From IMG/VR virus record IMGVR_UViG_3300002144_000477, positions 1 to 64,000 of that record: 64,000 bases of DNA. One strand, written 5' to 3'. This stretch comes from a virus. Below the pieces are notes generated by a model. It had not been told where the DNA came from. It saw nothing but the letters and a program-made list of their open reading frames with translations, and searched no databases. A program made the position numbers and the translations under genes. Below, piece after piece: positions 1-25,259 of this stretch (within the stretch, counting starts at the first letter, position 1; the number at the start of each line of letters is the position of its first letter).

Positions 1-1272
1 AAAGACGTATTCGGATTTTATTCAGTCGGCGACTACGAAACATACAGTAAGCTCGAAGCTATCGAAAAATCAAAAGAGGTTAACAAGCCATTTTTTTGGA
101 ATTTTAATGAGTACGAAACAAATCATTTCGATTGGACCGTAGAGCCTACAGAATCACTCGACGAATTATATCGACAACGAGCCCAGGAAATCAGAGACAA
201 ATACGATTATGTTGTGTTAATGTTTAGCGGCGGTCGAGATTCGAGTAACATATTCCATGCATTTACTAGCAACAATATTAAACTAGACGAAATCGTAAGC
301 TACAAATACGATGGTGGCATCGAGGACAGCCTTACTGATTTCGGCGATACAAAATATGTGCATCCAAAATTAAAAGCCGCATATGCTGCAGGTTATCCTT
401 ATAAAATTAAACAACGACAAGTTGACTTAAGCGAAATTGTTAAACAATACAATTTATTTTCCCACGAAGATATGATGAATCGTGCATACATGCATAATAG
501 CCATTATAGTGTTAGTCATTATGCTAAATCGTTTATGCGCGAATTTGTCCCAGAGTTTAGACAAATTATGAACAGTAGCAAACGTCTGTGCATAGTCTGG
601 GGATGCGATAAACCAGTGGTTGCACGGTGGAGAGATATGAAAGGTAAATGGCAGTGGGGAGTTTCGTATCGCGATAATCAAATTGATTCATGCATTCCTA
701 TTAATACCCAACATCGACGTATACCAGAAGAGTACGACGAGCTATTTTATTGGGGAAGCACCCCAACTTCTCTGAGAATTGTGTCAAAGCAAGCATACTC
801 TATTGCCAGGGTTGCTACTGCAATGGACTTAGCAGAGGTGCTAAATATTCCGCCTAAATCACTACTTACCAGGCTAGTTAGCGTATATCATTTCGGGCGG
901 GACGATCCTATTAAACCTGAACACTGGAATAAGATTAGTCATTTAGGGCTTCCTTTAAGCACCCTTAAAGATTTAAACGACTGGATCATCTATCCGACTA
1001 GTTATAATCCGCACACCGAGCCTGCGGTGGCTAAATCTGGGTGGACTAAAATGAAGGTAGACGGAACAGAGTTAGTTTATGCAAACAAATTTTTATCAAT
1101 GCGGGATGTCAGATGGCAGGCCGACGAAGAATATAAAAAGCATTTTAGTGTGTTAAACCACCAATTGAGTCAGCATCGAGAATACTGGAGGGACCCAGCG
1201 GTACATTTTGCAGCCGGTCAATGGCAATGGTGTATGAGCAAGATGTATACCTTAGGCTCGCTTAACCCTTGA
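1..1272 (+). CDS. PP-loop ATP pyrophosphatase-like protein, 5' end cut by window edge
   Basis: The reading frame is open from base 1, so an ATG at 214 is internal and the true start lies to the left. The nucleotide-binding PP-loop is visible as SGGRDSS right after a hydrophobic strand (VVLMFSGG), the SGGxDS signature of N-type ATP pyrophosphatases (asparagine synthetase, QueC, ThiI-like). These enzymes adenylate a carboxyl, carbonyl or tRNA/nucleoside substrate. No glutaminase domain is seen in the part present. The substrate cannot be inferred. The C-terminus (about 350 residues after the motif) matches no family I can name. It ends convergently, overlapping the next leftward gene by 11 bases. 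Fold is fairly sure, function is not. Confidence 0.7.
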   Translation, partial: KDVFGFYSVGDYETYSKLEAIEKSKEVNKPFFWNFNEYETNHFDWTVEPTESLDELYRQRAQEIRDKYDYVVLMFSGGRDSSNIFHAFTSNNIKLDEIVSYKYDGGIEDSLTDFGDTKYVHPKLKAAYAAGYPYKIKQRQVDLSEIVKQYNLFSHEDMMNRAYMHNSHYSVSHYAKSFMREFVPEFRQIMNSSKRLCIVWGCDKPVVARWRDMKGKWQWGVSYRDNQIDSCIPINTQHRRIPEEYDELFYWGSTPTSLRIVSKQAYSIARVATAMDLAEVLNIPPKSLLTRLVSVYHFGRDDPIKPEHWNKISHLGLPLSTLKDLNDWIIYPTSYNPHTEPAVAKSGWTKMKVDGTELVYANKFLSMRDVRWQADEEYKKHFSVLNHQLSQHREYWRDPAVHFAAGQWQWCMSKMYTLGSLNP

Positions 1273-2617
1273 CTTTAGCTAGGTTACTTAGTAGCGATTC
1301 TTTTTCGATGATATTACGAAAGTACTGATACGGCTTACCTGCTTTATCAACCTTGTTTTCAATTTTTGCTCGGAAAGTTAGGAACCGCTCACCTGAGTTT
1401 GCATCAACTACATGTATTTGCGGCTTGCCTGTTGAATCAGTCTTTACTGTTGCTACTAAATTAATTTTTTCAACTATACTATGTAAGCGATTAAAATCTA
1501 CCACACTGTACGTACCCTTATCGAATTGCACTAATCTAACATTAGGGTTGTTAAGTGTTCCGAAGTAGTTAATGCCTTTAAACACTTCTCGAATAAATTG
1601 TTCTTCACGCTTGTCGCCGGCCATGTGCTGAGTCATTAGTTCAGCGGCTCCGGCGTACACCATAGATAATGCCTCTGTTTTGTCAGTAGCATTAGTGTAC
1701 TCGTCCTCGTACTCACTTATATCAATACCAAATGGAGTGAACAACTCAACTAGTTTGTTAAATCCAGTCCCGCCAACTTGTCCAAACTGTTTAACCGGAC
1801 CGGCCTTAAGACTAATATCAAGTTTAGTTGTCCGCGGAGTGCTACCAATTGGGCTCTCTACCTCAACGTACACATCAGTCTTACGTGATGCTTCGCCAGT
1901 GACTCCATCGCTAATAACTTTAATCATATCGTCTTGGTGATTTTGATAAAAGTATTCTGCGTAACGAGTTGTCATGGACCCATTTGCATACTGTACTGCA
2001 CTACTAAACAAATCAGCTAGTAGATCTCGCTTGGCTGGATCCATTAAATCTTTATACGGAACTGTTTTTAATTTTAGTACAAATATTAGTATGTCTTTAT
2101 TAGCACCGTCGCGACCAGCAATGCTGGTAGTATATTCATCTTTACCACTTTTGCCTAATGCACCCAGCACCTTTGTTACATCGCCGACTGCAATTTCGCC
2201 AATACCAGTTGTTGTGCGTTTAGCAAACTTTGCAACCATTGCTGCGCCTAAGATGCCCTCAGCGATCTCACCACGGTTTGCTACTCCTGCTGCCGTAGTG
2301 CCATTACTGGTTGCACTTTTATAGTGGTTAAACCCGTCACCTAGTGACGCTGGACCAACTAGCTGAATTTGTTTGTTATTTGCGTCTTTTAACTTTACAG
2401 TAATTGCATTGCCGGTGCCGATTTGAATCTTAGGTCCAGCCCCTGCTAGCGTTTTTGTAATTGGCTGGTCAACTGCAAATCCTGGAACTATTTTAAGTAT
2501 TGCAGCCGCTACTTGTTTGCCAATTTTACTACTACTTAAAATTAGCTGGTGGCCTTCGCCGTACTTGGCGTCTTGAATACTTGCTTCTGGTAAGAGTTTA
2601 AAATCTGTAAATCGCAT
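1262..2617 (-). CDS. Predicted head-packaged protein with capsid-targeting N-terminus, 451 aa
   Basis: The protein starts MRFTDFKLLPEAS. This resembles the capsid-targeting sequence of T4 internal proteins and Alt (MKTYxEFIxEA), which is cut by the gp21 protease after [IL]xE. Here the predicted cut is L9-P10-E11/A12. The body shows no family I can name with confidence. A segment with SLKAGPVKQFGQVGG near residue 275 and a charged C-terminus are reminiscent of restriction-endonuclease-like folds, but catalytic residues were not confirmed. A late-promoter-like CATAAATA lies about 36 bases upstream. I infer an injected or internal head protein; T4 proteins of this kind act on host defence or transcription on entry. 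Confidence 0.6.
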   Translation of the reverse strand: MRFTDFKLLPEASIQDAKYGEGHQLILSSSKIGKQVAAAILKIVPGFAVDQPITKTLAGAGPKIQIGTGNAITVKLKDANNKQIQLVGPASLGDGFNHYKSATSNGTTAAGVANRGEIAEGILGAAMVAKFAKRTTTGIGEIAVGDVTKVLGALGKSGKDEYTTSIAGRDGANKDILIFVLKLKTVPYKDLMDPAKRDLLADLFSSAVQYANGSMTTRYAEYFYQNHQDDMIKVISDGVTGEASRKTDVYVEVESPIGSTPRTTKLDISLKAGPVKQFGQVGGTGFNKLVELFTPFGIDISEYEDEYTNATDKTEALSMVYAGAAELMTQHMAGDKREEQFIREVFKGINYFGTLNNPNVRLVQFDKGTYSVVDFNRLHSIVEKINLVATVKTDSTGKPQIHVVDANSGERFLTFRAKIENKVDKAGKPYQYFRNIIEKESLLSNLAKVKG

Positions 2618-2652
2618 GGTAACTTAGCATCCTGTAAAGATATATTTAACTA

Positions 2653-2660
2653 TATTTATG
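2653..2660 (-). promoter_or_regulatory. Putative late promoter (CATAAATA)
   Basis: CATAAATA on the minus strand, one mismatch from the T4 late element TATAAATA. It points into the 451-aa predicted head protein (start at 2617), leaving a leader of about 30 bases. Role inferred from motif and position. Confidence 0.5.
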
Positions 2661-2688
2661 ATAGTTTTATAGTTACAGCACTGAAGAG

Positions 2689-2958
2689 CTAGCGATACAA
2701 ATTGCTATAAATTTTAAGTTTAGATTTTTTAGCTTGTTTAGCTTGTTCAATGGTGTCTGCTGTTACATGCCCTTGGTCAATAAGAATATCAATCATTGCG
2801 GCTACGTCACCTAGCTCTTGGGCAAGCCATTCTCGTTTGTTTTTAACTGAAGTATCATTGATACCAAATCGACGAATTTTGCTAATAACCTGTACTAGTT
2901 CACCACATTCCTCTTGAAGGATTGTTAGTGCTTCGTCAAACTTATCTGTTATAAGCAT
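2689..2958 (-). CDS. mazG: MazG-like nucleotide pyrophosphohydrolase
   Basis: An 89-aa all-alpha NTP pyrophosphohydrolase. The metal-binding signature is present: EECGE at residues 16-20 and ELGD at 48-51 (EExxE...ExxD). Family members hydrolyse (d)NTPs to monophosphates and pyrophosphate. Marine phages often carry MazG, where roles in nucleotide pool salvage or ppGpp control have been proposed. The length fits the short single-domain form. It lies just downstream of the tRNA-Leu gene, in the leftward tRNA and small-gene group that starts at the perfect promoter near 4031. Confidence 0.85.
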   Translation of the reverse strand: MLITDKFDEALTILQEECGELVQVISKIRRFGINDTSVKNKREWLAQELGDVAAMIDILIDQGHVTADTIEQAKQAKKSKLKIYSNLYR

Positions 2959-2980
2959 TATTGCAGTCTCTATTTAAAAT

Positions 2981-3065
2981 TGGTGCGAGTACCCGGAGTC
3001 GAACCGGGACACCTTACGGCGAGAGATTTTAAGTCTCTTGTGTCTACCTATTTCACCATACTCGC
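2981..3065 (-). tRNA. tRNA-Leu (anticodon TAA)
   Basis: On the minus strand GCGAGTA pairs with TACTCGC, followed by discriminator A and an encoded CCA. The T arm carries GGTTCGACTCC. The anticodon stem AGAGA/TCTCT encloses the loop CTTAAAA, giving anticodon TAA. The long variable arm (CGCCGTAAGGTGT) is class II as expected for Leu. It reads TTA, a frequent codon in these AT-rich genes. Confidence 0.95.
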
Positions 3066-3073
3066 AATTTAGT

Positions 3074-3150
<77 letters not shown>

Positions 3151-3231
3151 ATACATTTCTTAACGTATGCATCTATTATAGCACTAACTGTAGAGTTGAG
3201 CAAGCATTTTTTACACCTTTTGGTAAAAACC

Positions 3232-3426
3232 TTATTTTGTTTCTTTCGAAGTGTCCGCAGTATCATCCGCTACGTCTGGTGGGAATACCAACTTAGCCGA
3301 CCCAATTGTTCCGGGCATGGGAATCGATTCTTTTTTCTTTCCGAAAGTTGCTTCCCAATTGTCGTTAAATTGCGATTGACTTACACTATAAGGTCGTGGA
3401 CTTGATCCTTTACCACCGGCTGACAT
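3232..3426 (-). CDS. Small conserved phage protein, 64 aa
   Basis: No function known. The N-terminus MSAGGKGSSPRPYSVS and the later NWEATFGKK match a pattern I recognise as a small phage protein family (GGKGSxxRPxxV...WDxIFG) present in many unrelated tailed phages. It sits between tRNA-Arg and another tiny gene. The C-terminus is acidic and probably disordered. There is no membrane segment or metal motif. Gap to the upstream gene is 3 bases, so the two are probably cotranscribed. Confidence 0.7.
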   Translation of the reverse strand: MSAGGKGSSPRPYSVSQSQFNDNWEATFGKKKESIPMPGTIGSAKLVFPPDVADDTADTSKETK

Positions 3427-3429
3427 AAT

Positions 3430-3597
3430 TTAATTCCGTTCTTTTTCACGTCTAGCTGGCATTTCGCCAGCTAATTGAGCTTGAATCATTGCTCGTTTAA
3501 AACTATTTCGTTGCTCCGCACTAGCACCTTTCATTAAGGCTATAATACGTTTTGTTGTTTTACTCAACTTAAATGTTTTAGTTGGTTTGATATCCAT
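3430..3597 (-). CDS. Small basic hypothetical protein, 55 aa
   Basis: The ATG at 3597 is preferred over a TTG 15 bases upstream; GAAAGA lies just before it. The product is lysine and arginine rich (IKPTKTFKLSKTTKRI...KGASAEQRNSFKRAMIQAQL). It looks helical in its second half and could bind nucleic acid, but no family was recognised. It lies between tRNA-Ser and the 64-aa gene. Confidence 0.55.
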   Translation of the reverse strand: MDIKPTKTFKLSKTTKRIIALMKGASAEQRNSFKRAMIQAQLAGEMPARREKERN

Positions 3598-3618
3598 TAT
3601 ATAATCTTTCAATAAATT

Positions 3619-3710
3619 TGGCGGAACGGGTGAGATTCGAACTCACGGGGCGCTTTAACACACCCGACTCCTTAGCAAGGAGCTGCCTTCGGCCACTCAG
3701 CCACCGTTCC
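3619..3710 (-). tRNA. tRNA-Ser (anticodon GCT)
   Basis: 92 bases on the minus strand, class II. Acceptor GGAACGG/CCGTTCC, discriminator G, encoded CCA. Anticodon loop TTGCTAA gives GCT, reading AGC and AGT. The variable arm is long (CGGGTGTGTTAAAGCGCCCCG) and the T loop is GTTCGAATC. AGT and AGC are common serine codons in the neighbouring genes. Confidence 0.95.
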
Positions 3711-3717
3711 AGTATTA

Positions 3718-4002
3718 TTATTTAGTTTTCGTATTTGCAGTCCCACTAGATTTTATTGTGGCTTCGGGATCAGTAGTACGATTAATTAGCTGTTGCATTT
3801 GAGACATTAAATCCACCATTAATGCAGTTGCTTCGCGACTACTAAGTGCTGGACTTCCTGCAATACAGGCCATATCGATAGTGTATGTGTCTTGTGCAAG
3901 TAATTGTATTTTTGTCGTTGCACACTCGTCGTATGTATCAAAATTAACATGACTAACTAAATTGCCTGCTACTAGAGTTATTAATGCATAAGTTGATGCC
4001 AT
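3718..4002 (-). CDS. Small hypothetical protein first in the tRNA operon, 94 aa
   Basis: The ATG at 4002 is chosen because AAAGGTG sits 7-8 bases upstream; a longer in-frame ORF would run into the sigma70 promoter. The protein begins with a hydrophobic stretch (YALITLVAGNLV) and has a Ser/Thr-rich tail. No family recognised. It is the first gene behind a perfect consensus sigma70 promoter (4031-4059), so it is probably among the earliest expressed phage proteins, and a host take-over role is possible. That is inference only. Confidence 0.6.
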   Translation of the reverse strand: MASTYALITLVAGNLVSHVNFDTYDECATTKIQLLAQDTYTIDMACIAGSPALSSREATALMVDLMSQMQQLINRTTDPEATIKSSGTANTKTK

Positions 4003-4030
4003 GCTACACACCTTTTCTAAATTATGCTGT

Positions 4031-4059
4031 ATTATAACATACTCTGTCAACGATGTCAA
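4031..4059 (-). promoter_or_regulatory. Perfect consensus sigma70 promoter, leftward
   Basis: Minus strand: -35 TTGACA (forward 4054-4059), exactly 17 bases, -10 TATAAT (forward 4031-4036). Both hexamers match the bacterial consensus 6 of 6. Start site expected near 4024. It would drive the 94-aa gene, tRNA-Ser, two small genes, tRNA-Arg, tRNA-Leu and perhaps mazG as an early transcript. Confidence 0.85.
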
Positions 4060-4065
4060 ACAGTT

Positions 4066-4091
4066 TTATCTCATGGTTTCTACTGAGATAA
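4066..4091. promoter_or_regulatory. Inverted repeat between divergent genes
   Basis: TTATCTCA (4066-4073) and TGAGATAA (4084-4091) form a perfect 8-bp inverted repeat with a 10-base centre, just upstream of the -35 box of the leftward promoter. It is followed by GCTAAATA (4092-4099), a possible rightward late element. It could be an operator or an RNA hairpin. Confidence 0.4.
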
Positions 4092-4104
4092 GCTAAATAA
4101 TCTG

Positions 4105-4119
4105 TGTTGCAATGCAACA
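4105..4119. promoter_or_regulatory. 15-bp palindrome, possible operator
   Basis: TGTTGCA-A-TGCAACA is a perfect odd palindrome in the divergent intergenic region, 35 bases before the first small rightward gene. The symmetry suits a dimeric DNA-binding protein. No regulator was identified. Confidence 0.35.
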
Positions 4120-4153
4120 TGTAATATATCACACACATTAAGGAAAACACAAA

Positions 4154-4318
4154 ATGTTTAAAAAACTAAAAGAACTCTTACAAGGAGTTATCACCAAGAC
4201 AAATCGTCAAAGCGCTCTAGAGAGTTTTATCTCTAGCAAAAACCCAACTAGCCCTGCAGAAATCGAGCACTGGGTACGCACATTTGATCGCCAATCAGGA
4301 GGTCGTTATGGCTACTAA
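4154..4318 (+). CDS. Small hypothetical protein, 54 aa
   Basis: Starts MFKKLKELLQGVITKTNRQS, an amphipathic basic helix, and ends GGRYGY. TAAGGAAAACACAAA precedes the ATG and supplies a Shine-Dalgarno (AAGGA). The stop overlaps the start of the next small gene by 11 bases. No family known. It is the first of four tiny rightward genes that oppose all surrounding leftward genes. Confidence 0.6.
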   Translation: MFKKLKELLQGVITKTNRQSALESFISSKNPTSPAEIEHWVRTFDRQSGGRYGY

Positions 4319-4430
4319 AATTAAAAACTCATTCAAAGCGTTTGGTCGTGCATTTTTTGATGCAATGATTGCTAGTGGCGAAAGACGTGCAGAACAGATA
4401 TTGCGTAATCGTTCGAGTTGGTATGCATAA
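4308..4430 (+). CDS. Very small hypothetical protein, 40 aa
   Basis: ATG at 4308 with AGGAGG nine bases upstream (in the 3' end of the previous gene), a strong ribosome site that argues it is translated. Sequence starts MATKIKNSFKAFGRAFFDAM. It is basic and probably one helix. It overlaps the next ORF by 8 bases. Function unknown. Confidence 0.6.
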   Translation: MATKIKNSFKAFGRAFFDAMIASGERRAEQILRNRSSWYA

Positions 4431-4575
4431 TTTACTAAAACAGATAGTTGTAGTATTCCGTAAAAAGGATTACGATAAGGAAATTATGCGTTTTGCCAAG
4501 TCCGAGTATTCAAAAGACTGGGAACACGCATATCATATGTTAATGCAGGGTAAAAAACCCTACACAGGAGTTTAA
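4423..4575 (+). CDS. Very small hypothetical protein, 50 aa
   Basis: ATG at 4423 overlaps the stop of the previous gene, suggesting translational coupling; the longer frame from 4369 begins at a TTG and is less likely. Contains YSKDWEHAYHMLMQGKKPY, a pattern I have seen in small proteins of T4-like phages, function unknown. Charged N-terminal half with RKKDYDKEIMRFAK. Confidence 0.55.
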   Translation: MHNLLKQIVVVFRKKDYDKEIMRFAKSEYSKDWEHAYHMLMQGKKPYTGV

Positions 4576-4576
4576 A

Positions 4577-4741
4577 ATGTTTAACGCAATTATAGAGTTT
4601 TTTGAAGCTATTGGTAAAGCACGTGCCGCTAGTCATCTAGCAAATCATGGATACTACGATTTAGCCAAAGGAATAATGCTCGACGTAGCTGAACCTCAGT
4701 ATTATGTTAAAAATACAGATGCACAAGAAGTGCATCCGTAA
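4577..4741 (+). CDS. Very small hypothetical protein, 54 aa
   Basis: The start is supported by ACAGGAG eight to nine bases upstream. Contains ARAASHLANHGYYDLAKGIM, resembling short helical motifs of DUF1127-like small proteins of proteobacteria, but that link is weak. Its stop codon abuts the stop of the convergent nucleotidyltransferase gene with no base between. Confidence 0.55.
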   Translation: MFNAIIEFFEAIGKARAASHLANHGYYDLAKGIMLDVAEPQYYVKNTDAQEVHP

Positions 4742-9687: not shown

Positions 9688-11247
9688 TTAAATTCCTGCT
9701 AGTCGTTTAATTGCACTGAAGTCTAGTACATCAGAATCTTCGTCAAGTTCTTCCGAAACATCTTTACCAGTTGGAACACCAGGTGACGTAGCCGGTGCTG
9801 ATTTTAGTGCGGCTATAACTTCGCTTTTAGCTAGATTTTCTGCACTTGACGATTCGTCGGTTGATGTAACTGCATCTTGTTGCGGCTTCCAGTTGCGTAA
9901 ACCATTTGCAATAGCATCAATATGTTTACGTGAGGCGCCGTCGAAATTATCACGTACTAGATTTTTATAAAACCCTGTAAACCATTTAACAATAGTTGGA
10001 CGAGCATCACTTGCTGGTGCTTGGTTTTGAGATTCGGCATACAGTTCGTCAAACAGCTCATCGTCGCCAAAAATATCGTATAATGCACTAGCAGCGTTAT
10101 CACCATCCGGTCCGAACTCGAGTGGTTTAGCCATTATTTCGTTAAACTTGCGGACAGCATTCTCGTCAGACGGTAATGCCCACGTGCCTTCTGTTAGCTC
10201 GTCGGATGCTAAAACTTCTTCTACCCACTGTTCGAATGCTAGTGCTAAATTACTTCTACTATCTAAGCGGCTTTGTCGAGCCTCGTGTGCGGCGTAGACA
10301 TACGGTAGCGCTTCTTCAATGCGTTGGTCCAAAAACTTTTTAGTGAATCTTTCTCTAAGGGCGTCGCCATCTTCGCCAATCTCAACTGCATCGCTTGATA
10401 CATAGTTTTCCCAAAATCTTGCATACCCTTTTGGACCGCGCATTGCTTTAAGTCCTTTACGTACTTCGAAGAATCGGTCGCGAGCTGCATCAACCATTGC
10501 TGGGACTTCAGTGTCCTCAAAGGCTTGACCGTTGCGAGTAGCACGTAGGAATTTACCTAACTGCTGTACTTCCTCAACCATCGCAAAGATTTCGCTGGAC
10601 CTGTCGTCGACAATTGTACCACCACTGGCTACGTGTTGGCCAATTGCCCTGGCGCCGTGCAAACTAGTAAATGGTAATTTAAAACGCTCACCGTCGGCTG
10701 TTTCAACAAAAATACTTTCAATGTTACGTGTACGTGCTCCACGCTTTTCGTCATCTACTAAACTGCTATGTCTAACAATTAAACGAGTTTCGCCTACTGT
10801 GTCGTAGCTTTTTGTTCGTGTTCCGTACATTTTACTTTCCTGAATCTTAATTTCATCACCATCCCATTGCGATGATGATTTAGTTTGTTGCATAATGTCT
10901 CTAATATCAAGTGAATTGCGGTTTATATCTCTAGTATCAAACGCTAGCATATTCTTCTTAGAGAATCTCCTAATGTCTTTAAGGAAATCGTACCAGGTGT
11001 CCTGATCTTCACGTTCAAGTTTATCTGCAATATCCTTGTTAAAATATACTTTTAAGCTGGTGCCATCTATTAAACTTATAGTAACGTTACCAAAGTTTTT
11101 GTCGTTAACCACAAAGTCAAAATTAAAAAATCTTGCTTTTTCTGGGTCAGTGGCATTTTTGCCCGTGTCATCGCCAAGCGACACGTCGTTAAACCGACCT
11201 CTAATTTTGTCAAATAACAAAGATGAAATTTTATCTAATTCTTGCAT
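9688..11247 (-). CDS. Conserved T4-like marine phage protein of unknown function, 519 aa
   Basis: I recognise this as a large protein conserved in T4-like cyanophages with no assigned role. Features: an N-terminal region with FNFDFVVNDKNFGNVTISL and LKVYFNK, a middle part with GERFKLPFTSLHGARAIGQH and RAFEDTEVP-like helices, and an acidic linker that ends in DFSAIKRLAGI at the extreme C-terminus. That last motif recurs in the scaffold gp22 and two small head-region proteins. AAAGGTAA precedes the start. A virion or head-assembly role is inferred from this motif and from the position after gp17. Confidence 0.65.
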   Translation of the reverse strand: MQELDKISSLLFDKIRGRFNDVSLGDDTGKNATDPEKARFFNFDFVVNDKNFGNVTISLIDGTSLKVYFNKDIADKLEREDQDTWYDFLKDIRRFSKKNMLAFDTRDINRNSLDIRDIMQQTKSSSQWDGDEIKIQESKMYGTRTKSYDTVGETRLIVRHSSLVDDEKRGARTRNIESIFVETADGERFKLPFTSLHGARAIGQHVASGGTIVDDRSSEIFAMVEEVQQLGKFLRATRNGQAFEDTEVPAMVDAARDRFFEVRKGLKAMRGPKGYARFWENYVSSDAVEIGEDGDALRERFTKKFLDQRIEEALPYVYAAHEARQSRLDSRSNLALAFEQWVEEVLASDELTEGTWALPSDENAVRKFNEIMAKPLEFGPDGDNAASALYDIFGDDELFDELYAESQNQAPASDARPTIVKWFTGFYKNLVRDNFDGASRKHIDAIANGLRNWKPQQDAVTSTDESSSAENLAKSEVIAALKSAPATSPGVPTGKDVSEELDEDSDVLDFSAIKRLAGI

Positions 11248-13473: not shown

Positions 13474-14019
13474 ATGAGTGATACCTTACTTTTAAACGCT
13501 AATTTCGAACCTATTAGTATCCTGCCGCTAAGTGTGATTGGATGGCAGCAGGCCATTAAGCTAATTTTCTTAGATAAAGTTACTGTGCTAGCCAACCACG
13601 ATGACCGTGTTGCTAGAAGCAGTCATATCACAATGCCTATCCCTAGTGTTTGCGTTACTAAGGAATACTTTAACCCAATGAAGCATGTTAAGTTTACACG
13701 TACTAACTTATACTTGCGGGATATGTACCAATGTCAGTATTGCGAAGATGTGTTTGATAAGAAGGATTTAACAATCGATCACGTAATTCCTAAAATGGCT
13801 AACGGAAACACCTCGTGGGAAAACTGTGTAACTGCATGCAAGCCGTGCAATCATAAAAAAGGCTCCAAACTAATGAAGCCATTGCGTGAACCATTTCGCC
13901 CAGAATACTTTAACTTAGTTGCAAAGTGGAAGAAGCGCCCTACTAAAATCCATTACTACCAGGAGTGGTTGCCTTACCTCGGGATAGAAGAATCGCAAAT
14001 AAAAGCCGGCGTAGGTTAA
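13474..14019 (+). CDS. HNH endonuclease
   Basis: 181 aa from ATG 13474 (MSDTLLLNANFEPISILPL), the usual beginning of this HNH group; the longer ORF would add a spurious hydrophobic leader upstream of the predicted transcript start. The core is CQYC (87-90), IDHVIP (D102-H103), WENCVTACKPC (Cys 122 and 125) and NHKKG. These form a zinc-supported beta-beta-alpha-metal nuclease. It opposes all neighbours and has its own promoter, typical of a free-standing mobile nuclease, though a packaging role like HNH proteins beside terminases is possible. Confidence 0.88.
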   Translation: MSDTLLLNANFEPISILPLSVIGWQQAIKLIFLDKVTVLANHDDRVARSSHITMPIPSVCVTKEYFNPMKHVKFTRTNLYLRDMYQCQYCEDVFDKKDLTIDHVIPKMANGNTSWENCVTACKPCNHKKGSKLMKPLREPFRPEYFNLVAKWKKRPTKIHYYQEWLPYLGIEESQIKAGVG

Positions 14020-14222
14020 TAAGGTTTTTCGCCAGTTAAATATGGTCTAGCAAACCAAAGGCGAAACCATTCTTCTGTTCCTGGCTTAATATCGTTAGTC
14101 TTCTGATAGTTAGCTTTTTCGCTAGCAGTATCAGTGAGGTTGTCAGAAGAGGTGTGTTTAGTAATACCTGCTAGTCGCACCAATTCGTCAATTTCTTGCC
14201 CGAACATATCATCTAGCTTCAT
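14016..14222 (-). CDS. Small protein with RLAGI motif, 68 aa
   Basis: Starts MKLDDMFGQEIDELVRLAGI: the motif RLAGI is at residues 16-20, as in the C-terminus of the 519-aa protein. The end, PGTEEWFRLWFARPYLTGEKPY, is aromatic and looks like a conserved phage tail piece. It overlaps the upstream gene by 4 bases and the convergent HNH gene by 4. No function known; packaged or assembly-related by motif and place. Confidence 0.6.
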   Translation of the reverse strand: MKLDDMFGQEIDELVRLAGITKHTSSDNLTDTASEKANYQKTNDIKPGTEEWFRLWFARPYLTGEKPY

Positions 14223-14575
14223 TTGTTTTTACGCTTGACTGGGCCCTTTGGTGTCATTGGACTAACTGTATTAACACCAGGCATTTCGGTGCTACTATTG
14301 CCTTTGCTAATTTTTTTACTCTTAATGCCCATTTTCTTTTTAGCTGCATCAATTATAGCTCGATCGCCGTCGCTATACGGCAAAATAGTAAATCTACCTT
14401 GAGTTGGCCCGGCTTCATGAAAATCAGGACCAGTTGGTGATCCTGCAACACTAACAGCGAATCTATACGCAGTGTACGGATCAGCATCTAGAATTTCAGC
14501 GTGAGGCAAGCTATGTCGTGCGCTTTTACGCAACTTCTTAGTCTTAGCCTCGCTGATAATTTCGCTATAACGCAT
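14219..14575 (-). CDS. Predicted internal head protein with capsid-targeting sequence, 118 aa
   Basis: Starts MRYSEIISEAKTKK, close to the T4 internal-protein leader MKTYxEFIxEA; predicted gp21 cut I7-S8-E9/A10. The mature part is rich in Lys and Arg at both ends (KTKKLRKSARH, and KKKMGIKSKK, KGPVKRKNK), as expected for DNA-associated internal proteins. The middle has YTAYRFAVSVAGSP and GRFTILPYSDGD. I infer that it enters the prohead, is trimmed and may be injected. It adjoins the next gene with no gap. Confidence 0.6.
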   Translation of the reverse strand: MRYSEIISEAKTKKLRKSARHSLPHAEILDADPYTAYRFAVSVAGSPTGPDFHEAGPTQGRFTILPYSDGDRAIIDAAKKKMGIKSKKISKGNSSTEMPGVNTVSPMTPKGPVKRKNK

Positions 14576-15358
14576 TTATTGCTTATTACGAAGTAGCGTT
14601 TCGTATGCTTTCATAAAAGCTGAACCCATTCCATCGTCGTCTTCTTTAACTCGAGAACCAGACTCATACATGCTAGCACCAATTGAACGATACATGTCGC
14701 TTACTTCATCCATTACGTCGGTATCTAATCCAAGTGGCTCTTCACCGTGAATCATTTTAACCATGTCGTGAAGGTCGCTTAATCGATCTGTATAATAACG
14801 ACTATCCTCGGAAGAGGCAGTTGTCAGGGCTTGTTCCATTTCACGAATTTGTTTTTTAACCATTGCCAGGACTTTGTTGTCAGCATCAGTAAGTTCACGT
14901 GTTGCTGTTTCTTTGATATCATCTTCATCATCCATATGATTTGCTATTGATTTTACGTGTCCACGTTTTAATCCTGTTTCTTGTGCGATCATGTCAATAC
15001 GATGGTCACCTAATTCCTCTGGGTTACACGCATCCAGACCACATGCTCTATCTATTAAATCACGTGCCTTCTGAATACGATCTTGCTTGCCTTCTTCAAT
15101 TTGTTCTTCACTAACTGGCGAATGAGCAGATCCGCAATGCGGGCAGGTGCATGTATCGGCGCTCGCTGGTACTTCGGTTGGTTGTTGTGCAGACGGCATA
15201 CTATCCATTCCAGCAAGTCGTAGAATATCGCTTAACGAAATAACCGCTGGTTGTTCATTCATATTGCCGCCGCATGATTCGCATACAGCAGTGTTATCCG
15301 TAGTAACATTAGGCTCTTCTTGAGCAAATGTTTTTAGTAATGATAAAATCTCGTTCAT
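14576..15358 (-). CDS. Acidic zinc-motif protein with RLAGM motif, 260 aa
   Basis: Start at 15358 (MNEILSLLKTFAQEE) has AAGGAACTT upstream; the longer ORF overlaps the previous gene. Two CxxC knuckles (CESC 26-29 and CPHC near 75) may bind one zinc. Between them lies SLSDILRLAGM (41-51), the motif shared with gp22 and others. The rest is helical and acidic, with a helix-turn-helix-like AQETGLKRGHVKSIANH. Function unknown; a head core or accessory protein is suggested by the motif and by the gp16-gp17 neighbourhood. Confidence 0.6.
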   Translation of the reverse strand: MNEILSLLKTFAQEEPNVTTDNTAVCESCGGNMNEQPAVISLSDILRLAGMDSMPSAQQPTEVPASADTCTCPHCGSAHSPVSEEQIEEGKQDRIQKARDLIDRACGLDACNPEELGDHRIDMIAQETGLKRGHVKSIANHMDDEDDIKETATRELTDADNKVLAMVKKQIREMEQALTTASSEDSRYYTDRLSDLHDMVKMIHGEEPLGLDTDVMDEVSDMYRSIGASMYESGSRVKEDDDGMGSAFMKAYETLLRNKQ

Positions 15359-15368
15359 AATAAGTTCC

Positions 15369-15821
15369 TTAGTTTGCTTTAGCAGTTTTAAATTTTGTTG
15401 AATTTTTTTCAAAATCCTTGAGCATGCTGTCTATACGCTTTTGCCCAACTGTGTCTTGTTTACCAGCATCGTCTTCGGCGTCTTGATCTTCGACGTCGAA
15501 CGCATCACCGGCTCTAGCAATAGCAATAAACTGCGCAGGAATCATTGCACGAGTAGTAATTAATCGTTGCAACACTTCGGCTGTAGCAGGGTACTTCATC
15601 TCAATGTTAAATGTTTCTGTTTCGATTGCACCTAGACGGCGAAATTCTGGATGCTCACCAATTGGTGCCGACTTAGGCTTGCTCATCGTTTCAACTTGAA
15701 ATACATCGCATGCGTTTTTAATGCGGTCAATGATATCTTTTGTTAACTTGATGTTAGCAATTTTAATTTTAAATTCGTAAATCTTGTCAGACTCGAAATA
15801 ATAGGTTGCAAATGTTTTCAT
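15369..15821 (-). CDS. Conserved hypothetical, possibly virion protein, 150 aa
   Basis: Starts MKTFATYYFESDKIYEFKIKIA. The first ten residues loosely resemble a capsid-targeting leader, but the cut site would be YFE rather than [IL]xE. SKPKSAPIGEHPEFRRLG and FNIEMKYPATAEVLQRLI recall a virion-associated protein of T4-like cyanophages. The C-terminus is acidic then basic. A GATAAATA late element lies about 40 bases upstream. Confidence 0.5.
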   Translation of the reverse strand: MKTFATYYFESDKIYEFKIKIANIKLTKDIIDRIKNACDVFQVETMSKPKSAPIGEHPEFRRLGAIETETFNIEMKYPATAEVLQRLITTRAMIPAQFIAIARAGDAFDVEDQDAEDDAGKQDTVGQKRIDSMLKDFEKNSTKFKTAKAN

Positions 15822-19736: not shown

Positions 19737-19745
19737 CCAAAAAGA

Positions 19746-20470: not shown

Positions 20471-20478
20471 TATTTATC
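20471..20478 (-). promoter_or_regulatory. Late promoter of gp19 (GATAAATA)
   Basis: GATAAATA on the minus strand, 21 bases before the gp19 ATG, inside a near-palindrome CAGATA-TT-TATCTG (20468-20481). Confidence 0.65.
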
Positions 20479-20536
20479 TGTATTACTGTAGTTAATGAAA
20501 GCCTTTCAACTTTCATTAACTGTACAGTTAATTACT

Positions 20537-23500
20537 TTATACACCTGCGGCAATATCGCCTGGGTTCTTTAAGCGGATTGGAATATAGATAAACTCAACC
20601 GCCTTCATCGGCTCAATAGCTACATCAACGTACAACTCATTACGTGCAATACGTGTCGGTGTATTATTAGAATCGTCACATACAACTAGGTAATCGTAAA
20701 TACCACGTTTAGCAACTAAATCGTTTAATGCACCTTCAATGATGTTCTTAATTTGATCGCGTGTGATTTTATCATTCGGTTCAAACAAGAATGCATTGCC
20801 TGCGTTAGCAAGGATTGTACGAATGTAGTTTACTAGTCGCGCTACGTTTACACGATCCAATGAACTTGCTACTGGGTTGCGTGTCTTTTGACCCCAACAT
20901 ACTAAACCAACGCCTGGTAGGATAGTAAATGGGTTAACACGGTTTTCGTATAATGCATCACGTAATCCATTGTTAATGCCGTTGCGTACAAAGCCGCCTG
21001 TTTTGCTGTTAACATAACCAATATCAGCGGCGTTATCAATCAATCCGCGACGTACGCCAGCTGGTGCGAACCACTGATAGCTTACGTTGTCGTTGCGTAC
21101 AAATGTACGTAGCGCCATATGACTTGGAGGAACGACTACTGTGTTTCCGCTCAAATCATTTGTCCTGCCACTTGGGTAATAAACTGCTAAGTACGGATCA
21201 GCAGTGCTTAAGCCTGTACCATCTGTATTATTTGCCCAATTTGCAATAGACACGCTGTTAGCAGGGAGTGTCATTGGTGTATCACCGATAACAAACGCAG
21301 TATTCCTACGATCGTTGTTTAGTGCGACCATATTAGGGATAACCTCAGGGAAGCCTGGTGCAGTAATTAAGTTAAACGCAAACTGTTCTTCGCGAATCTG
21401 GGTATTTGCATCAACCGCTGCTTTCATAGCCTTAACAACCATGTTGCGCTGAGCCAGCGATCCCATAAATGGTGCGCCGCTATCCTTTAAGCCACTGACA
21501 CTAATCCATGCATCAGTTACACTTGGCATATCCTCGCCTGGGAAACTATCTTCGTTGAAGTAGCTGCTAACGAATTTCTTAACATTGTAACCACTACGAC
21601 GAGTGTTCCACAACAGTGTCCCACGTGGGTATAGCTTGTAGTTAGGTGCATCTAAGTCTAAGTAGTTGCTTGTTGTTAAGTCTTTGATACTTGGTAAATT
21701 ACCAGCAACAACATCGGTTGTGCCGTCAGTGTCCCATCGTGCATCAGCAAATACGATACCGTTTTGGCTAAAACGGTCAGTTGCATCAATTGCAACCCAC
21801 TGTTTAGCATCATTGTAACGATATACCTTAGGGAAGTTCTCTAAATCGCTAGTGTCCAGCCACAAATCACCTGCAACTAGTGCGGTGTTATCACTTTGTG
21901 ATGTTGGCTTAGTTGCTGTTACAATAACGCCGCCTGGATCAGTATTTGTTAAGTTGTAGCCGCGAGCATCGTTTGCAAGATTGCGGTAGCCTTTCCAGCC
22001 GTTATCATTAACCATGATGTCAACTGTTGTTGCATCGCCGTAGTACCAATATGTGTTGTCAGCTGGAGCTTTGTACGGTGTTGTAAACCCTACTTCGTAC
22101 TCTAACCACGACCATGGAGATAAGCTAATGTTACCTTTGCCATCGTCCATGTGTGTAGCAGGAGTAAATCCGGCACCATAAACCATTGTACCAGTTGTGT
22201 CACGCAGTACAATAATACCACCTGTTTCGTGTGTTAGCGTAATAGTATTGCCTTTGGCTGACGCACTAACTTCAGGAATACCAACTGCTGAGAAACGAGT
22301 TACCCAGTCTGCAGCAGTAGTTACAGTTTCGTTAAAGGTTAGTTGGTATCCAAACAACGTATCAAATCCGCTACGTGAGACGTTTACAGTGAATACGCCA
22401 CCACCTGCTAATCCAGTAACTGTGCCTGATTGAATCGTTTTGCCCTGGACGTTACGGACTGCTAGTCGTATAGATGACTGATATCCAGTGGATGTTACAT
22501 CGGTATCGTCAGCTGACGCAATTCCAACAACAGTGCCGTACGGAATGCTAAAGCCGTTTGCAAACGGATCAAGTGCGTAACTTGCTTTTACCATATCTGC
22601 AGCAACAACGACTGCCTGGGCCACCCAAGTGTTAGCGTCGCTGTTATATTTCTTAACTGCTAAGTTTACACCTGCCCCAATTGAGGTAGTCTTGACATAT
22701 ACAGATCCAGTTGGACGAGGCACACTGTCAGATGCTCTCCATGCCGGAATATCAATATACGATGCATACGAAACTGTTGGACTGTTATAATCACCAGCAA
22801 CAATGCCTAACTCTCCGAGCAAGTCGCCACTTAAGTTTACAATCGAAATTACACCATCAGCTGTGAATCCATCGCTTGTGGCGGTTGAATCTGCAAATAG
22901 TTGCAATGTACCAGATGCTGTTACTTTTGCAACAACTCCGGTTAATCCCGCAGCGAGTGTAATGTCTTGTGCTAGGTCAGTAACTGACGTTCCAGATACC
23001 GTCTGCACAGTAACACCGTTTAACGAAATAGACGAGCCAAGTGTTAACACTGGGTTTAACTCTGTAGATTCAACGGTTGGGTGATGTAGCTGCCATGAAT
23101 CGTCGCCAACTGGATTCCAATATCCAGTTGGCCCTTTGTGGAATAATTGGTTAGCAGCTAAGCCGTAGTCGGCGTTGACTGTAACAATTGCAAAGTCGCC
23201 GTTTTCGCCAATATAGCCATTTGGATAGTTGCCTGCTCCGGATACATCTGCTAGGTCTGTTACAAGAATTGGTGTACGCTTAATAAATTGCCCGGTTGCG
23301 GCTTGCCATTCATACACGCCCCAATCAGTTGTGTTTAAATCTAACCAATGGGTTCCGTTGTCTGCTTTACCAACTGGTCGAATGCTTGTTGCTTCTAACT
23401 CAGCTAAGTTAACATCGGCACGGATTGAGTATAAACGATTAGTTAAACCTAATGTGCTATACGCCGCTAATAAGCCGTATTCATTCAATGCTGTTCCATG

Positions 23501-23746
23501 GATCGGAGTTCCACTTGCAGACTGCTTAAAGATCGGTGCGCCTAACTGTGTTACTAGCTCACGTTGGCTAGTAAATACCTGCAATGCAGCCGCATTCTCT
23601 TTTGTTGTGCCAGCGGCGGTAGCACCGTTCGCTGTTTTATCTTGTTCTGTTGCTAGGAATACTAGAGGTACTGTTCCAACTGCGCCAGGTATATAGGCGC
23701 TTTCGTCTGTTACAGATAACTCTAAACCTGGTGAGATCAATGCCAT
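20537..23746 (-). CDS. 18: Contractile tail sheath protein gp18, unusually long
   Basis: 1069 aa versus 659 in T4. The N-terminus ISPGLELSVTDESAYIPGAVGTVPLVF and the C-terminus YVDVAIEPMKAVEFIYIPIRL are classic sheath ends. The conserved assembly part lies near RNMVVKAMKAAVD to RVNVARLVNYIRTIL. The extra length is in the middle (about residues 200-700), where beta-rich Thr/Val/Gly segments with FADARWDTDG and WYYGDATTVDIMVNDNGW suggest inserted Ig-like or carbohydrate-binding domains on the outer face. The sheath contracts to drive the tube through the envelope. A Shine-Dalgarno AAGGAAG is present. Confidence 0.93.
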   Translation of the reverse strand: MALISPGLELSVTDESAYIPGAVGTVPLVFLATEQDKTANGATAAGTTKENAAALQVFTSQRELVTQLGAPIFKQSASGTPIHGTALNEYGLLAAYSTLGLTNRLYSIRADVNLAELEATSIRPVGKADNGTHWLDLNTTDWGVYEWQAATGQFIKRTPILVTDLADVSGAGNYPNGYIGENGDFAIVTVNADYGLAANQLFHKGPTGYWNPVGDDSWQLHHPTVESTELNPVLTLGSSISLNGVTVQTVSGTSVTDLAQDITLAAGLTGVVAKVTASGTLQLFADSTATSDGFTADGVISIVNLSGDLLGELGIVAGDYNSPTVSYASYIDIPAWRASDSVPRPTGSVYVKTTSIGAGVNLAVKKYNSDANTWVAQAVVVAADMVKASYALDPFANGFSIPYGTVVGIASADDTDVTSTGYQSSIRLAVRNVQGKTIQSGTVTGLAGGGVFTVNVSRSGFDTLFGYQLTFNETVTTAADWVTRFSAVGIPEVSASAKGNTITLTHETGGIIVLRDTTGTMVYGAGFTPATHMDDGKGNISLSPWSWLEYEVGFTTPYKAPADNTYWYYGDATTVDIMVNDNGWKGYRNLANDARGYNLTNTDPGGVIVTATKPTSQSDNTALVAGDLWLDTSDLENFPKVYRYNDAKQWVAIDATDRFSQNGIVFADARWDTDGTTDVVAGNLPSIKDLTTSNYLDLDAPNYKLYPRGTLLWNTRRSGYNVKKFVSSYFNEDSFPGEDMPSVTDAWISVSGLKDSGAPFMGSLAQRNMVVKAMKAAVDANTQIREEQFAFNLITAPGFPEVIPNMVALNNDRRNTAFVIGDTPMTLPANSVSIANWANNTDGTGLSTADPYLAVYYPSGRTNDLSGNTVVVPPSHMALRTFVRNDNVSYQWFAPAGVRRGLIDNAADIGYVNSKTGGFVRNGINNGLRDALYENRVNPFTILPGVGLVCWGQKTRNPVASSLDRVNVARLVNYIRTILANAGNAFLFEPNDKITRDQIKNIIEGALNDLVAKRGIYDYLVVCDDSNNTPTRIARNELYVDVAIEPMKAVEFIYIPIRLKNPGDIAAGV

Positions 23747-23818
23747 CTTTTTTCTTCCTTATCATAAGTAATATCTTTGAATGCAACGCAGAATGCCAAC
23801 ACCCAATTCACTTAAATG

Positions 23819-23826
23819 TATTTATT
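23819..23826 (-). promoter_or_regulatory. Putative late promoter of gp18 (AATAAATA)
   Basis: AATAAATA on the minus strand, about 70 bases before gp18, placed just after a terminator-like hairpin (23837-23856). Confidence 0.5.
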
Positions 23827-23836
23827 TGGGGCAGGC

Positions 23837-23856
23837 AAAAAACCGTCAGTTACGGT
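23837..23856 (-). terminator. Terminator-like hairpin upstream of gp18
   Basis: Read leftward, ACCGT-AACTG-ACGGT is followed by T6. Stem only 5 bp but GC-rich. It would end leftward transcripts from the dNMP kinase side. A neighbouring CCTTAATTAAGG palindrome and outer GGGGCA/TGCCCC pairing could build a larger fold. Confidence 0.55.
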
Positions 23857-23887
23857 GCCCTTAATTAAGGTTTGCCCCGTAAGACGT

Positions 23888-23895
23888 GGTAAATA
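23888..23895 (+). promoter_or_regulatory. Late promoter abutting the start codon (GGTAAATA)
   Basis: GGTAAATA, then GTAGT, then the ATG of the zinc-motif gene at 23901. Same 5-base spacing as at 19729 and 46033. No Shine-Dalgarno is visible. Confidence 0.45.
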
Positions 23896-23900
23896 GTAGT

Positions 23901-24251
23901 ATGAATTACCGACCTCTTTGCCCTATTTGCGACGATAGACCCGTAGCAGTAAATTGCCGTAAGGGCGATCGGGTATATTATCGTAAGCTATGCGACCCTT
24001 GTAGCCGGAAGGGAAAAAAGCTAAAGCCTGCGGCACCGCAATGGTACCGATTCGGGTATCGTAAAAAACCGCATTGTGATAAGTGCGGCTTTAAGGCTAG
24101 ATACAACAAACAACTAACGGTGTTTCATGTCGACGGGAATCTGTCCAATGTAGACGAATTCAATCTCCGTACAATCTGTGCAAACTGTAAAATAGAGTTA
24201 CACGAGTCTAAAACTCAATGGAAATCAAGCACTAACATTAGCAATTTCTAA
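23901..24251 (+). CDS. Zinc-motif HNH-like protein, 116 aa
   Basis: Start ATG 23901 (MNYRPLCPICDDRPVAVN); a GTG 15 bases earlier is less likely. Four zinc-knuckle pairs: CPIC, CDPC, CDKC and CANC. The end, TVFHVDGNLSNVDEFNLRTICANC, has the HxDGN...NL..xCxxC layout of HNH-type nucleases, and the family is one I recall from T4-like cyanophages without a proven role. It runs against its neighbours and overlaps the dNMP kinase 3' end by 27 bases. Confidence 0.65.
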   Translation: MNYRPLCPICDDRPVAVNCRKGDRVYYRKLCDPCSRKGKKLKPAAPQWYRFGYRKKPHCDKCGFKARYNKQLTVFHVDGNLSNVDEFNLRTICANCKIELHESKTQWKSSTNISNF

Positions 24252-24899
24252 TTGGGTAAGTTTTAAATTAATAAGTTGATGTAACTCATTTAACGTTCCG
24301 TTATTGTTAATAGTGATATCAAATTCGCTGGTGTGCCTTGCCCAACTCCACTCGCTAGCATGTACCTCAGGATAAGCAACTTCCATATGATCACCTGAGT
24401 CAAAAACAATACGCTCCCCATCTTTACCGGCTGCATTAGTTTTAACTGCATTAGCCCACCATGTTGGCATTTCGCCTCTGCGTACAAATATTATCTTTCC
24501 GCTGATATCACGGATTGCATTAATTTCATTCGGAAACCGCACATCCGGCACTACAAAGTTTGTAGTAGGATTTGCTAGGACTCGTTGTTTTAGCAAACTT
24601 ACCCATATCCCATCGTAAAATCCATTACGCATACAGTCGGTGCCGAATAGTTGTAGCACTAGACGTGGTGTAATTTCTTTGCTAGTTTCTGCGGTCCAAA
24701 AGGTGTCGGGCTCTTCCCTCCACAATCGTGACTCTGGCGTATCGCCTTCAAGTAACGTTCTATCCCAGTCGAATAGTGTTGCTACTGCATCTTTAAGTTT
24801 ATCCGCAAAGCTAATTTTTTGATAAGCATGCTCACTAACCAAATAGTCAGCCACTGTGCCTTTACCGCTACCAATTAATCCGCAAATTCCGATAATCAT
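24225..24899 (-). CDS. 1: Deoxynucleoside monophosphate kinase gp1
   Basis: 224 aa (T4 gp1: 241). P-loop GLIGSGKGT at 7-15; KISFADKLKDAVATLF, then LVLQLFGTDCMRNGFYDGIWV and VVPDVRFPNEINAI are typical of T4 gp1, which phosphorylates dGMP, dTMP and hydroxymethyl-dCMP. GGAG lies before the ATG, with a sigma70-like promoter right upstream, fitting early nucleotide metabolism embedded in a late region. Confidence 0.9.
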   Translation of the reverse strand: MIIGICGLIGSGKGTVADYLVSEHAYQKISFADKLKDAVATLFDWDRTLLEGDTPESRLWREEPDTFWTAETSKEITPRLVLQLFGTDCMRNGFYDGIWVSLLKQRVLANPTTNFVVPDVRFPNEINAIRDISGKIIFVRRGEMPTWWANAVKTNAAGKDGERIVFDSGDHMEVAYPEVHASEWSWARHTSEFDITINNNGTLNELHQLINLKLTQLEIANVSA

Positions 24900-24925
24900 A
24901 AAAAAACTCCATGTGTAATACAGTT

Positions 24926-24954
24926 AGTATACAACATAGAGTTTGTATTGTCAA
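24926..24954 (-). promoter_or_regulatory. Sigma70-like promoter of dNMP kinase gene
   Basis: Minus strand TTGACA (forward 24949-24954), 17 bases, TATACT (forward 24926-24931). Start expected near 24919, 20 bases before the ATG. Confidence 0.8.
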
Positions 24955-24962
24955 GCAGTACG

Positions 24963-25259
24963 TTATCGTTTTTTAATAGCGTTTAGCATCTGAATTAATC
25001 TGCTAGTAGGGTTTACCCTTTTTGTTTTTTTAGCTTTTCTTGCTTGTTTAAGTTTAGTATTTGCACGAGTAACTTTCATCTTGGCACGTTTAGCTAGATC
25101 AATAGGCTGACTGCAATCGAGTACATGAGGAACCACCCTACCTTGGCGCTGGCCAGTGGTGCAACGCCACTTCATCACTGGTCCTTTTTTGGACTTGGCC
25201 CATACTAGCTCGTGCTCGTTTAAGCCATTATCTTCAGGTAAAAACTCGTATGCCCGCAT
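24963..25259 (-). CDS. Predicted internal head protein with capsid-targeting sequence, 98 aa
   Basis: ATG 25259 gives MRAYEFLPEDNGLNEHE, matching the T4 internal-protein leader pattern; predicted gp21 cut L7-P8-E9/D10. The mature chain is extremely basic in its second half (KRAKMKVTRANTKLKQARK, then KKTKRVNPTSR), as in T4 IP proteins. ACAGGG precedes the ATG. It follows the neck-like gene by 5 bases. Predicted to be packaged with DNA; what it does after injection is unknown. Confidence 0.6.
   Translation of the reverse strand: MRAYEFLPEDNGLNEHELVWAKSKKGPVMKWRCTTGQRQGRVVPHVLDCSQPIDLAKRAKMKVTRANTKLKQARKAKKTKRVNPTSRLIQMLNAIKKR

What the first reader, a model, noticed from the sequence alone, without database searches (positions are those of the whole stretch)
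1262..25259. Three proteins share a T4-type capsid-targeting propeptide
MRFTDFKLLPE/A (1262-2617), MRYSEIISE/A (14219-14575) and MRAYEFLPE/D (24963-25259) all follow the T4 internal-protein leader MKTYxEFIxE/A, with a gp21 cut site [IL]xE at the same place. Two of them are very basic like T4 IPs. They are scattered, not a cluster. They are predicted to be packed in the head, trimmed by gp21 (48425-49060) and injected with DNA, where T4 counterparts block host defences or alter transcription. The 451-aa protein would be an unusually large injected effector.
Basis: partly seen in the sequence, partly recalled or inferred. Interest (0 to 1): 0.75.

Follow-up and report, generated by a model that had tools for sequence, protein, structure and literature searches.

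The report
Capsid-packaged phage proteins, including a nuclease
A T4-type phage carries several unrelated proteins that share a short removable front tag like the one T4 uses to load proteins into its head, and one of them looks like a DNA-cutting restriction enzyme that may be injected with the viral DNA.

Summary
The three proteins exist (all on the minus strand) and carry T4-like head-targeting leaders. Every distinct homolog of the 98-aa protein (45 of 45) and of the 118-aa protein (21 of 21) keeps [ILV]xE at the leader's end. In the 451-aa family, homologs either carry a leader of 8-16 residues ending [ILVM]xE|[AV][STP], or belong to one cyanophage-type clade that starts at the mature end. 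A strict leader motif occurs 3 times in 168 genes against 0.008 expected; the third hit (161695-162150) lies outside the window. The 451-aa protein is predicted to be a PD-(D/E)xK nuclease: invariant E120, D248, S269, K271, with restriction enzyme HinP1I as the one clear fold match. Leader removal by gp21 and packaging are very likely. Injection and an intracellular target are inferred. A leader-bearing restriction-enzyme-fold protein packed with the genome appears undescribed in the papers I could search. T4 packaging of EcoRI and staphylococcal nuclease through this leader is the engineered precedent.

The parts
1262..2617 (-). P1: 451-aa protein, predicted PD-(D/E)xK nuclease with head-targeting leader
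   Evidence: ORF; homologs L130-L206; fold model mean pLDDT 85.9; HinP1I best match; phrog_3560 1.4e-41, unknown function
2585..2617 (-). P1 leader MRFTDFKLLPE, predicted gp21 cut after E11 (P1' A)
   Evidence: 30 distinct leaders of 8-16 aa ending [ILVM]xE before A[ST], VT or AP in homologs; residues 1-12 have pLDDT below 50
1265..2290 (-). P1 nuclease core, residues 110-451 (E120, D248, S269-x-K271, Q280 invariant)
   Evidence: 31-sequence alignments; core model pLDDT 88.8, pTM 0.86; HinP1I Foldseek E 1.9e-4, prob 0.99, Z 7.7
2689..2958 (-). MazG-like pyrophosphohydrolase just upstream of P1 (context; mazG also lies near leaderless homologs in Syn19 and S-RIM8)
   Evidence: phrog_4856 1.2e-20
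14219..14575 (-). P2: 118-aa basic leader-bearing protein
   Evidence: ORF; homologs L111, L116, L117, L119, L121, L129 and L214-L235
14549..14575 (-). P2 leader MRYSEIISE, predicted gp21 cut after E9
   Evidence: E9, [ILV]7, [FI]6, [ED]5 and [RK]2 present in 21 of 21 distinct homologs
24963..25259 (-). P3: 98-aa very basic leader-bearing protein in the neck-gene cluster
   Evidence: ORF; 45 distinct full-length homologs; conserved synteny
25215..25259 (-). P3 leader MRAYEFLPEDNGLNE with two possible cuts, E9 and the conserved E15|H16
   Evidence: [ILVM]xE at the boundary in 45 of 45 distinct homologs, leader length 9-18; Salicola phage SCTP-2 homolog lacks the leader
25265..26134 (-). Head-tail adaptor (neck) gene upstream of P3, syntenic in relatives (context)
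   Evidence: phrog_211 4.1e-34
48425..49060 (-). gp21-type prohead protease, presumed to remove the leaders
   Evidence: PF03420 4.2e-26; phrog_207 3.1e-57; 35% identity to T4 gp21
46097..47269 (-). gp23-type major capsid protein with candidate propeptide cut HLVSE|SATGG
   Evidence: PF07068 3.9e-95; sequence; T4 gp23 has FLTE|AEIGG

Best explanation
The N-terminal 9-15 residues of these proteins are removable head-targeting propeptides of the T4 capsid-targeting-sequence type. Steps: (1) late in infection the leader binds the scaffolding core and draws each protein into the growing prohead (inferred from T4); (2) the phage's gp21 protease cuts after [ILV]xE, freeing the mature protein inside the shell (site conservation shown, cleavage inferred); (3) DNA is packed around it (inferred); (4) the mature proteins leave with the DNA at infection (inferred). 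P3 and P2 are small basic proteins, most likely DNA-associated internal proteins. P1 is a PD-(D/E)xK nuclease of restriction-endonuclease fold carried as head cargo; after injection it most likely cuts host or resident foreign DNA before phage genes are expressed, a job the leaderless cyanophage relatives would do after expression in the cell.
For: Same leader shape on unrelated proteins of one genome, 3 hits against 0.008 expected and 0 of 870 internal Met. Cut site kept while leader length varies: P3 45/45 distinct proteins (leader 9-18 aa), P2 21/21, P1 30 distinct leaders of 8-16 aa before A[ST], VT or AP. In P3, homologs that lost the first Glu (MRVEEFVTKPEIINE|HEMVF) keep the second; T4 IPI behaves likewise, MKTFKEFTSTTTPVSTITE|A, its mature form being 76 residues (PMC3012670). 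Leaderless homologs start at the mature end: SCTP-2 gp12 for P3 and a 13-row clade for P1 (MA[AV]LSSTSPGQ) separated by one branch, support 100/99. P1 leader residues are unfolded in the model while residues from about 20 fold well. gp21 is present. P3 always lies in the neck-gene cluster in the T4-type relatives checked. P1 nuclease: invariant E120, D248, S269, K271, Q280 in 31 sequences; HinP1I is the single clear fold match. The T4 leader is known to package EcoRI endonuclease, staphylococcal nuclease and other foreign proteins and deliver them (PMC9026906).
Against: No proteomics: presence in virions, cleavage and injection are all untested. P1' is H in P3 and often R or E in P2, whereas the T4 sites read here are followed by A. 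Leaders here are one residue shorter than T4's. HinP1I match is moderate (Z 7.7-8.0, rmsd about 5), and no Pfam, NCBIfam or PADLOC family names P1 a nuclease. No DNA methylase of three families was found in this genome, so how packed phage DNA would escape P1 is unexplained. A clade of P1 homologs works without a leader, so packaging is not essential to the enzyme.
Confidence: 0.8

Rival explanations
1. The proteins are packaged and trimmed but act in head assembly or DNA condensation, not as injected effectors: P3 would be a head-completion or DNA-binding structural protein, P2 a core component, and P1 a nuclease that tidies DNA during packaging.
For: P3 is always in the neck-gene cluster and is very basic with an invariant K/R-rich tail; P2 relatives lie beside other late, probably core-associated genes; P1 would meet packaged DNA in the prohead.
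Against: P1 has leaderless relatives beside mazG, primase-helicase and, in one lineage, a Dam methylase rather than packaging genes; no conserved link of P1 to terminase was seen.
Confidence: 0.3
2. The leader targets the prohead but is not always cut; its [ILV]xE is part of the docking helix and the proteins stay attached to the core.
For: The Glu could be conserved for binding; in T4 targeting and cutting residues lie within the same ten positions (PMC9026906).
Against: [ILV]xE stays next to the mature start when leader length doubles, and leaderless homologs begin right there, which fits a cut site better than a docking residue.
Confidence: 0.07
3. Chance: many genes begin MR or MK, and [IL]xE within a dozen residues is common.
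For: A loose form of the motif gives 9 gene starts against 2.5 expected, so the loose form alone proves little.
Against: Strict form 3 against 0.008; conservation in all three families and at cut sites across homologs as low as 28% identity.
Confidence: 0.02

Closest known systems
T4 internal proteins IPI, IPII, IPIII and their capsid targeting sequence
   Same: Short N-terminal leader M[KR]..(E/D)(F/I)(I/L)xE shared by otherwise unrelated, often basic proteins; gp21-type protease present; extended leader with a lost first site as in IPI.
   Different: Leader one residue shorter at its minimum; the residue after the cut is H, R or E in many homologs; one cargo is a nuclease rather than a nuclease inhibitor; different phage group, with homologs in cyanophage-like and jumbo contigs.
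HinP1I type II restriction endonuclease (PDB 2FKC, 1YNM)
   Same: Predicted fold of P1 residues 110-451; invariant acidic residue and x-K pair on neighbouring strands, with S269-x-K271 where HinP1I has Q-x-K (HinP1I residues from my own knowledge).
   Different: About 10% identity over some 205 aligned residues; P1 has an extra N-terminal domain (residues 20-100), a leader and no partner methylase found in this genome.
T4 Alt and polyvalent proteins injected by phages (PMC5512222)
   Same: Enzymes loaded in the head and delivered with DNA; predicted head-borne DNases and RNases are known among polyvalent proteins.
   Different: P1 is a single-activity protein with a classic short leader, not a multidomain giant, and was not linked to the ParB-like or PBECR domains described there.
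phiKZ/SPN3US head proteins cut by gp175/gp245 (PMC5694885)
   Same: Propeptide removal after a short motif ending in Glu, with spare sites in propeptides.
   Different: Their motif is S/A-x-E and propeptides are mostly over 100 residues; here I/L/V-x-E and 8-18 residues.

Membership tests
T4-type capsid-targeting propeptide / internal protein | Short N-terminal leader with M[KR] and an [IL]xE gp21 site, shared by unrelated proteins | tested here: met
T4-type capsid-targeting propeptide / internal protein | Cut site conserved in homologs independently of leader length | tested here: met
   P3 45/45, P2 21/21, P1 30 distinct leaders
T4-type capsid-targeting propeptide / internal protein | Phage encodes a gp21-type protease | tested here: met
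   PF03420 4.2e-26; alignment to T4 gp21
T4-type capsid-targeting propeptide / internal protein | Leader directs packaging and is removed in the virion | not testable with these tools
   Needs fusion assays and virion mass spectrometry
T4-type capsid-targeting propeptide / internal protein | Mature protein enters the host cell | not testable with these tools
T4 IPI/IPII/IPIII by homology of the mature part | Sequence similarity of mature regions to T4 IPs | tested here: inconclusive
   tblastn against phages listed no T4-type IP among the hits, but T4 IPs themselves share no similarity outside the leader (PMC12373910), so absence is not informative
PD-(D/E)xK nuclease (HinP1I-like), for P1 | Catalytic acidic residue and (D/E/Q/S)xK on adjacent strands, plus helix Glu | tested here: met
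   D248, S269-x-K271, E120 invariant in 31 sequences, placed beside strands 249-254 and 267-272 and helix 115-132
PD-(D/E)xK nuclease (HinP1I-like), for P1 | Fold match to a solved nuclease | tested here: met
   HinP1I only hit with E below 1e-3 in Foldseek, prob 0.97-0.99; Z 8.0 and 7.7 against 4.3-4.4 for the next unrelated entry
PD-(D/E)xK nuclease (HinP1I-like), for P1 | Named family hit by profile search | tested here: inconclusive
   No Pfam, NCBIfam or PADLOC family names it a nuclease; profile search of PDB sequences found no nuclease
PD-(D/E)xK nuclease (HinP1I-like), for P1 | DNA cleavage activity | not testable with these tools
   Needs biochemistry

The most novel reading that the evidence does not exclude
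Environmental T4-type phages naturally load a restriction-endonuclease-like enzyme, and probably a wider enzyme set (kinase, HAD phosphatase, DUF6267 and cytidylyltransferase-like proteins with the same kind of leader in relatives), into their heads with a T4-type removable leader, so that host or rival DNA is attacked at the moment of injection.
Probability: 0.4. Interest if true: 0.8.

Novelty: new variant of a known kind. Interest (0 to 1): 0.62.

Why it matters
T4's head-targeting leader is well studied in coliphages, and engineers have used it to pack EcoRI and other foreign enzymes. These families suggest that nature uses the same leader widely outside coliphages, and for a DNA-cutting enzyme. 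If true, injected cargo can be predicted directly from sequence by a leader, a conserved cut site and leaderless relatives that start at the cut. It also raises a testable question: how a packed nuclease spares the genome beside it.

Tried and rejected
tblastn with P2 alone found no relatives in named phages even at E 10; relatives came from a leader DNA pattern search. An alignment of all seven P2 sequences was too diverse to scan with, so a closer subset was used. The first impression that P1 homologs lack a leader (cyanophage and Desulfovibrio phage hits) was wrong for the family: most IMG/VR homologs carry one. Weak Pfam hits of P1 members (Mut7-C, Card1 and others, E above 0.006) and PADLOC hits (KwaB, 8.9e-4 in 2 of 31 members) are scattered and were not used. 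PDB profile hits to acyl carrier proteins are chance. A phage-encoded protective DNA methylase was looked for with PF02086, PF01555 and PF00145 and not found in this record. The nucleotidyltransferase at 162479-163873 (MFVADLFEE) keeps E8 in relatives but not always a hydrophobic residue at P3; left as a candidate only. The reversed leader pattern gave 3 hits where the forward pattern gave 25 in 16 records. My notebook entry 2 numbers the conserved P3 site E16|H17; the correct numbering is E15|H16.
Full report
What is there. The window is 64 kb of a 170,893-base virus record of T4 type, with gp21 protease, gp23 capsid protein and a scaffold-like gene at 46-49 kb. The three proteins are real ORFs, all on the minus strand. 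I call them P1 (1262-2617, 451 aa), P2 (14219-14575, 118 aa) and P3 (24963-25259, 98 aa). T4 internal proteins read from the T4 record begin MKTYQEFIAE|A (IPII, IPIII) and MKTFKEFTSTTTPVSTITE|A (IPI).

Is it more than chance. On 168 genes of at least 60 aa from my simple gene calling, M[RK]xx[ED][FI][ILV]xE fits three starts (P2, P3 and 161695-162150), against 0.008 expected from composition and 0 of 870 internal methionines; a wider form that admits P1 gives four against 0.14, again with 0 internal. Because the motif shape was chosen after the fact, the tests that matter use relatives.

P3. IMG/VR holds many relatives. In all 45 distinct proteins used, the mature part starts directly after [ILVM]xE, although the leader runs from 9 to 18 residues. 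Examples are MRAEEFITE|HEMVF, MRSTEFIPE|HKMVW, MKISEIITE|GVVY and MRVEEFVTKPEIINE|HEMVF. In the last form the first Glu is lost and the second kept, so in the window protein the conserved cut is E15|H16, not E9. A few contigs with a different or truncated N-terminus (L037, L082, L085-L087) were left out of the count. A homolog in Salicola phage SCTP-2 lacks the leader and starts at the mature end. P3 lies after a neck gene (phrog_211) in every T4-type relative checked. Its mature part is very basic, with invariant C33 and C49.

P2. It had no named relatives, but the leader pattern search turned up proteins in related records that proved to be its homologs at 28-60% identity. The search selected for the leader, so those first hits cannot count as independent. 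The further contigs were found from conserved peptides in the mature part instead. In all, 21 of 21 distinct proteins keep [RK]2, [ED]5, [FI]6, [ILV]7 and E9.

P1. Relatives are phrog_3560/33928, unknown function, in cyanophages and a Desulfovibrio phage and 79 IMG/VR loci. Of 53 sequences examined, 39 carry a leader of 8-16 residues ending [ILVM]xE before A[ST], VT or AP. The other 14 start MA-x-LSSTSPGQ or similar, except L188, whose start appears cut off by the contig end. The class was assigned with a pattern that includes the Glu, but no intermediate forms were seen. On a tree of the core domain the 13 leaderless rows are one side of one branch (100/99), so one gain or loss explains the pattern. 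Long branches make deeper joins unsure.

What P1 is. The model (mean pLDDT 85.9) leaves residues 1-12 unfolded and folds the rest. HinP1I restriction endonuclease is the only Foldseek match below 1e-3 (E 4.3e-4; core alone 1.9e-4, probability 0.99) and stands at Z 8.0 and 7.7 over 205-212 residues, against 4.3-4.4 for unrelated entries. Z near 8 is not decisive alone, but invariant E120, D248, S269, K271 and Q280 sit where a PD-(D/E)xK site needs them. I put the nuclease call at about 0.85. In ACG-2014f the leaderless relative is followed by a Dam methylase; no methylase of three families was found in this record.

Mechanism. Shown: leaders, conserved cut sites, a gp21 homolog with the T4 GE[LV][ND]HP and GVSSRG blocks, and modular presence or absence of the leader. 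Inferred from T4: core docking, gp21 cutting, co-packaging and injection. The T4 leader suffices to package foreign proteins, EcoRI endonuclease and staphylococcal nuclease among them (PMC9026906), and packed staphylococcal nuclease digests DNA upon addition of calcium (PMC3012670). So a dormant nuclease inside a head is feasible. What P1 cuts is a guess: host or resident foreign DNA at entry.

Wider pattern. Relatives carry more leader-bearing proteins near P1 homologs: L206 holds a P-loop kinase (AAA_33, MLNFKRYLDE|G) and a DUF6267 protein (MIKFRKYLEE|A); L170 a HAD-like phosphatase; L181 a DUF6321 protein (MRAREFITE|D); L144 and L158 a P2-like protein. Start methionines carry the wide motif far more often than internal ones in these loci (19 of 891 against 3 of 1810; 52 of 1013 against 11 of 1729), though these counts include the three families themselves.

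Novelty. Leader and protease are a known kind. The restriction-endonuclease-fold cargo, the moving cut site and the spread beyond coliphages are a new variant. Searches of held papers for capsid targeting sequences with cyanophages or for injected nucleases found no description, but subscription journals are mostly not held.

Noticed in passing
window 47300-48409, 9688-11247, 14016-14222, 14576-15412; L172, L181, L214-L235: A short motif like L[KR][KR]LAG[ILM] recurs at protein ends or in linkers of head-region proteins, including the C-terminus of the scaffold-like protein and of two P1 homologs. A simple form occurs 6 times against 1.4 in shuffles (maximum 5 of 200). It may be a second core-docking motif.
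   Followed up: partly
G000 161695-162150 (L005 17695-18150): A fourth leader-bearing protein, MKPQDFITE|RSD, acidic; homologs L208-L213 keep E9 (MNSKDFLTE, MKSSHFVAE).
   Followed up: partly
G000 160308-163873: A cluster around the fourth leader protein: a cytidylyltransferase-like protein (MFVADLFEE) and a 301-aa protein with several internal [ILV]xE|[AGS] sequences that might be cut by gp21 at several places. Distant homologs of the 301-aa gene lie beside P2 in relatives (MSLKKYITE|S).
   Followed up: partly
L144 960-1358, L158 1962-2354: In related contigs a P2-like leader protein (MRLLELLNE|D) sits near the P1 homolog, so the scattered genes of the window are grouped elsewhere.
   Followed up: no
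L023 3550-4449 (ACG-2014f): A Dam-type DNA methylase gene directly follows the leaderless P1 homolog, resembling a restriction-modification pair.
   Followed up: no
L206 2069-6082: A kinase/zeta-toxin-like P-loop protein, the P1 homolog and a DUF6267 protein all carry MxxFxxxLxE-type leaders.
   Followed up: partly
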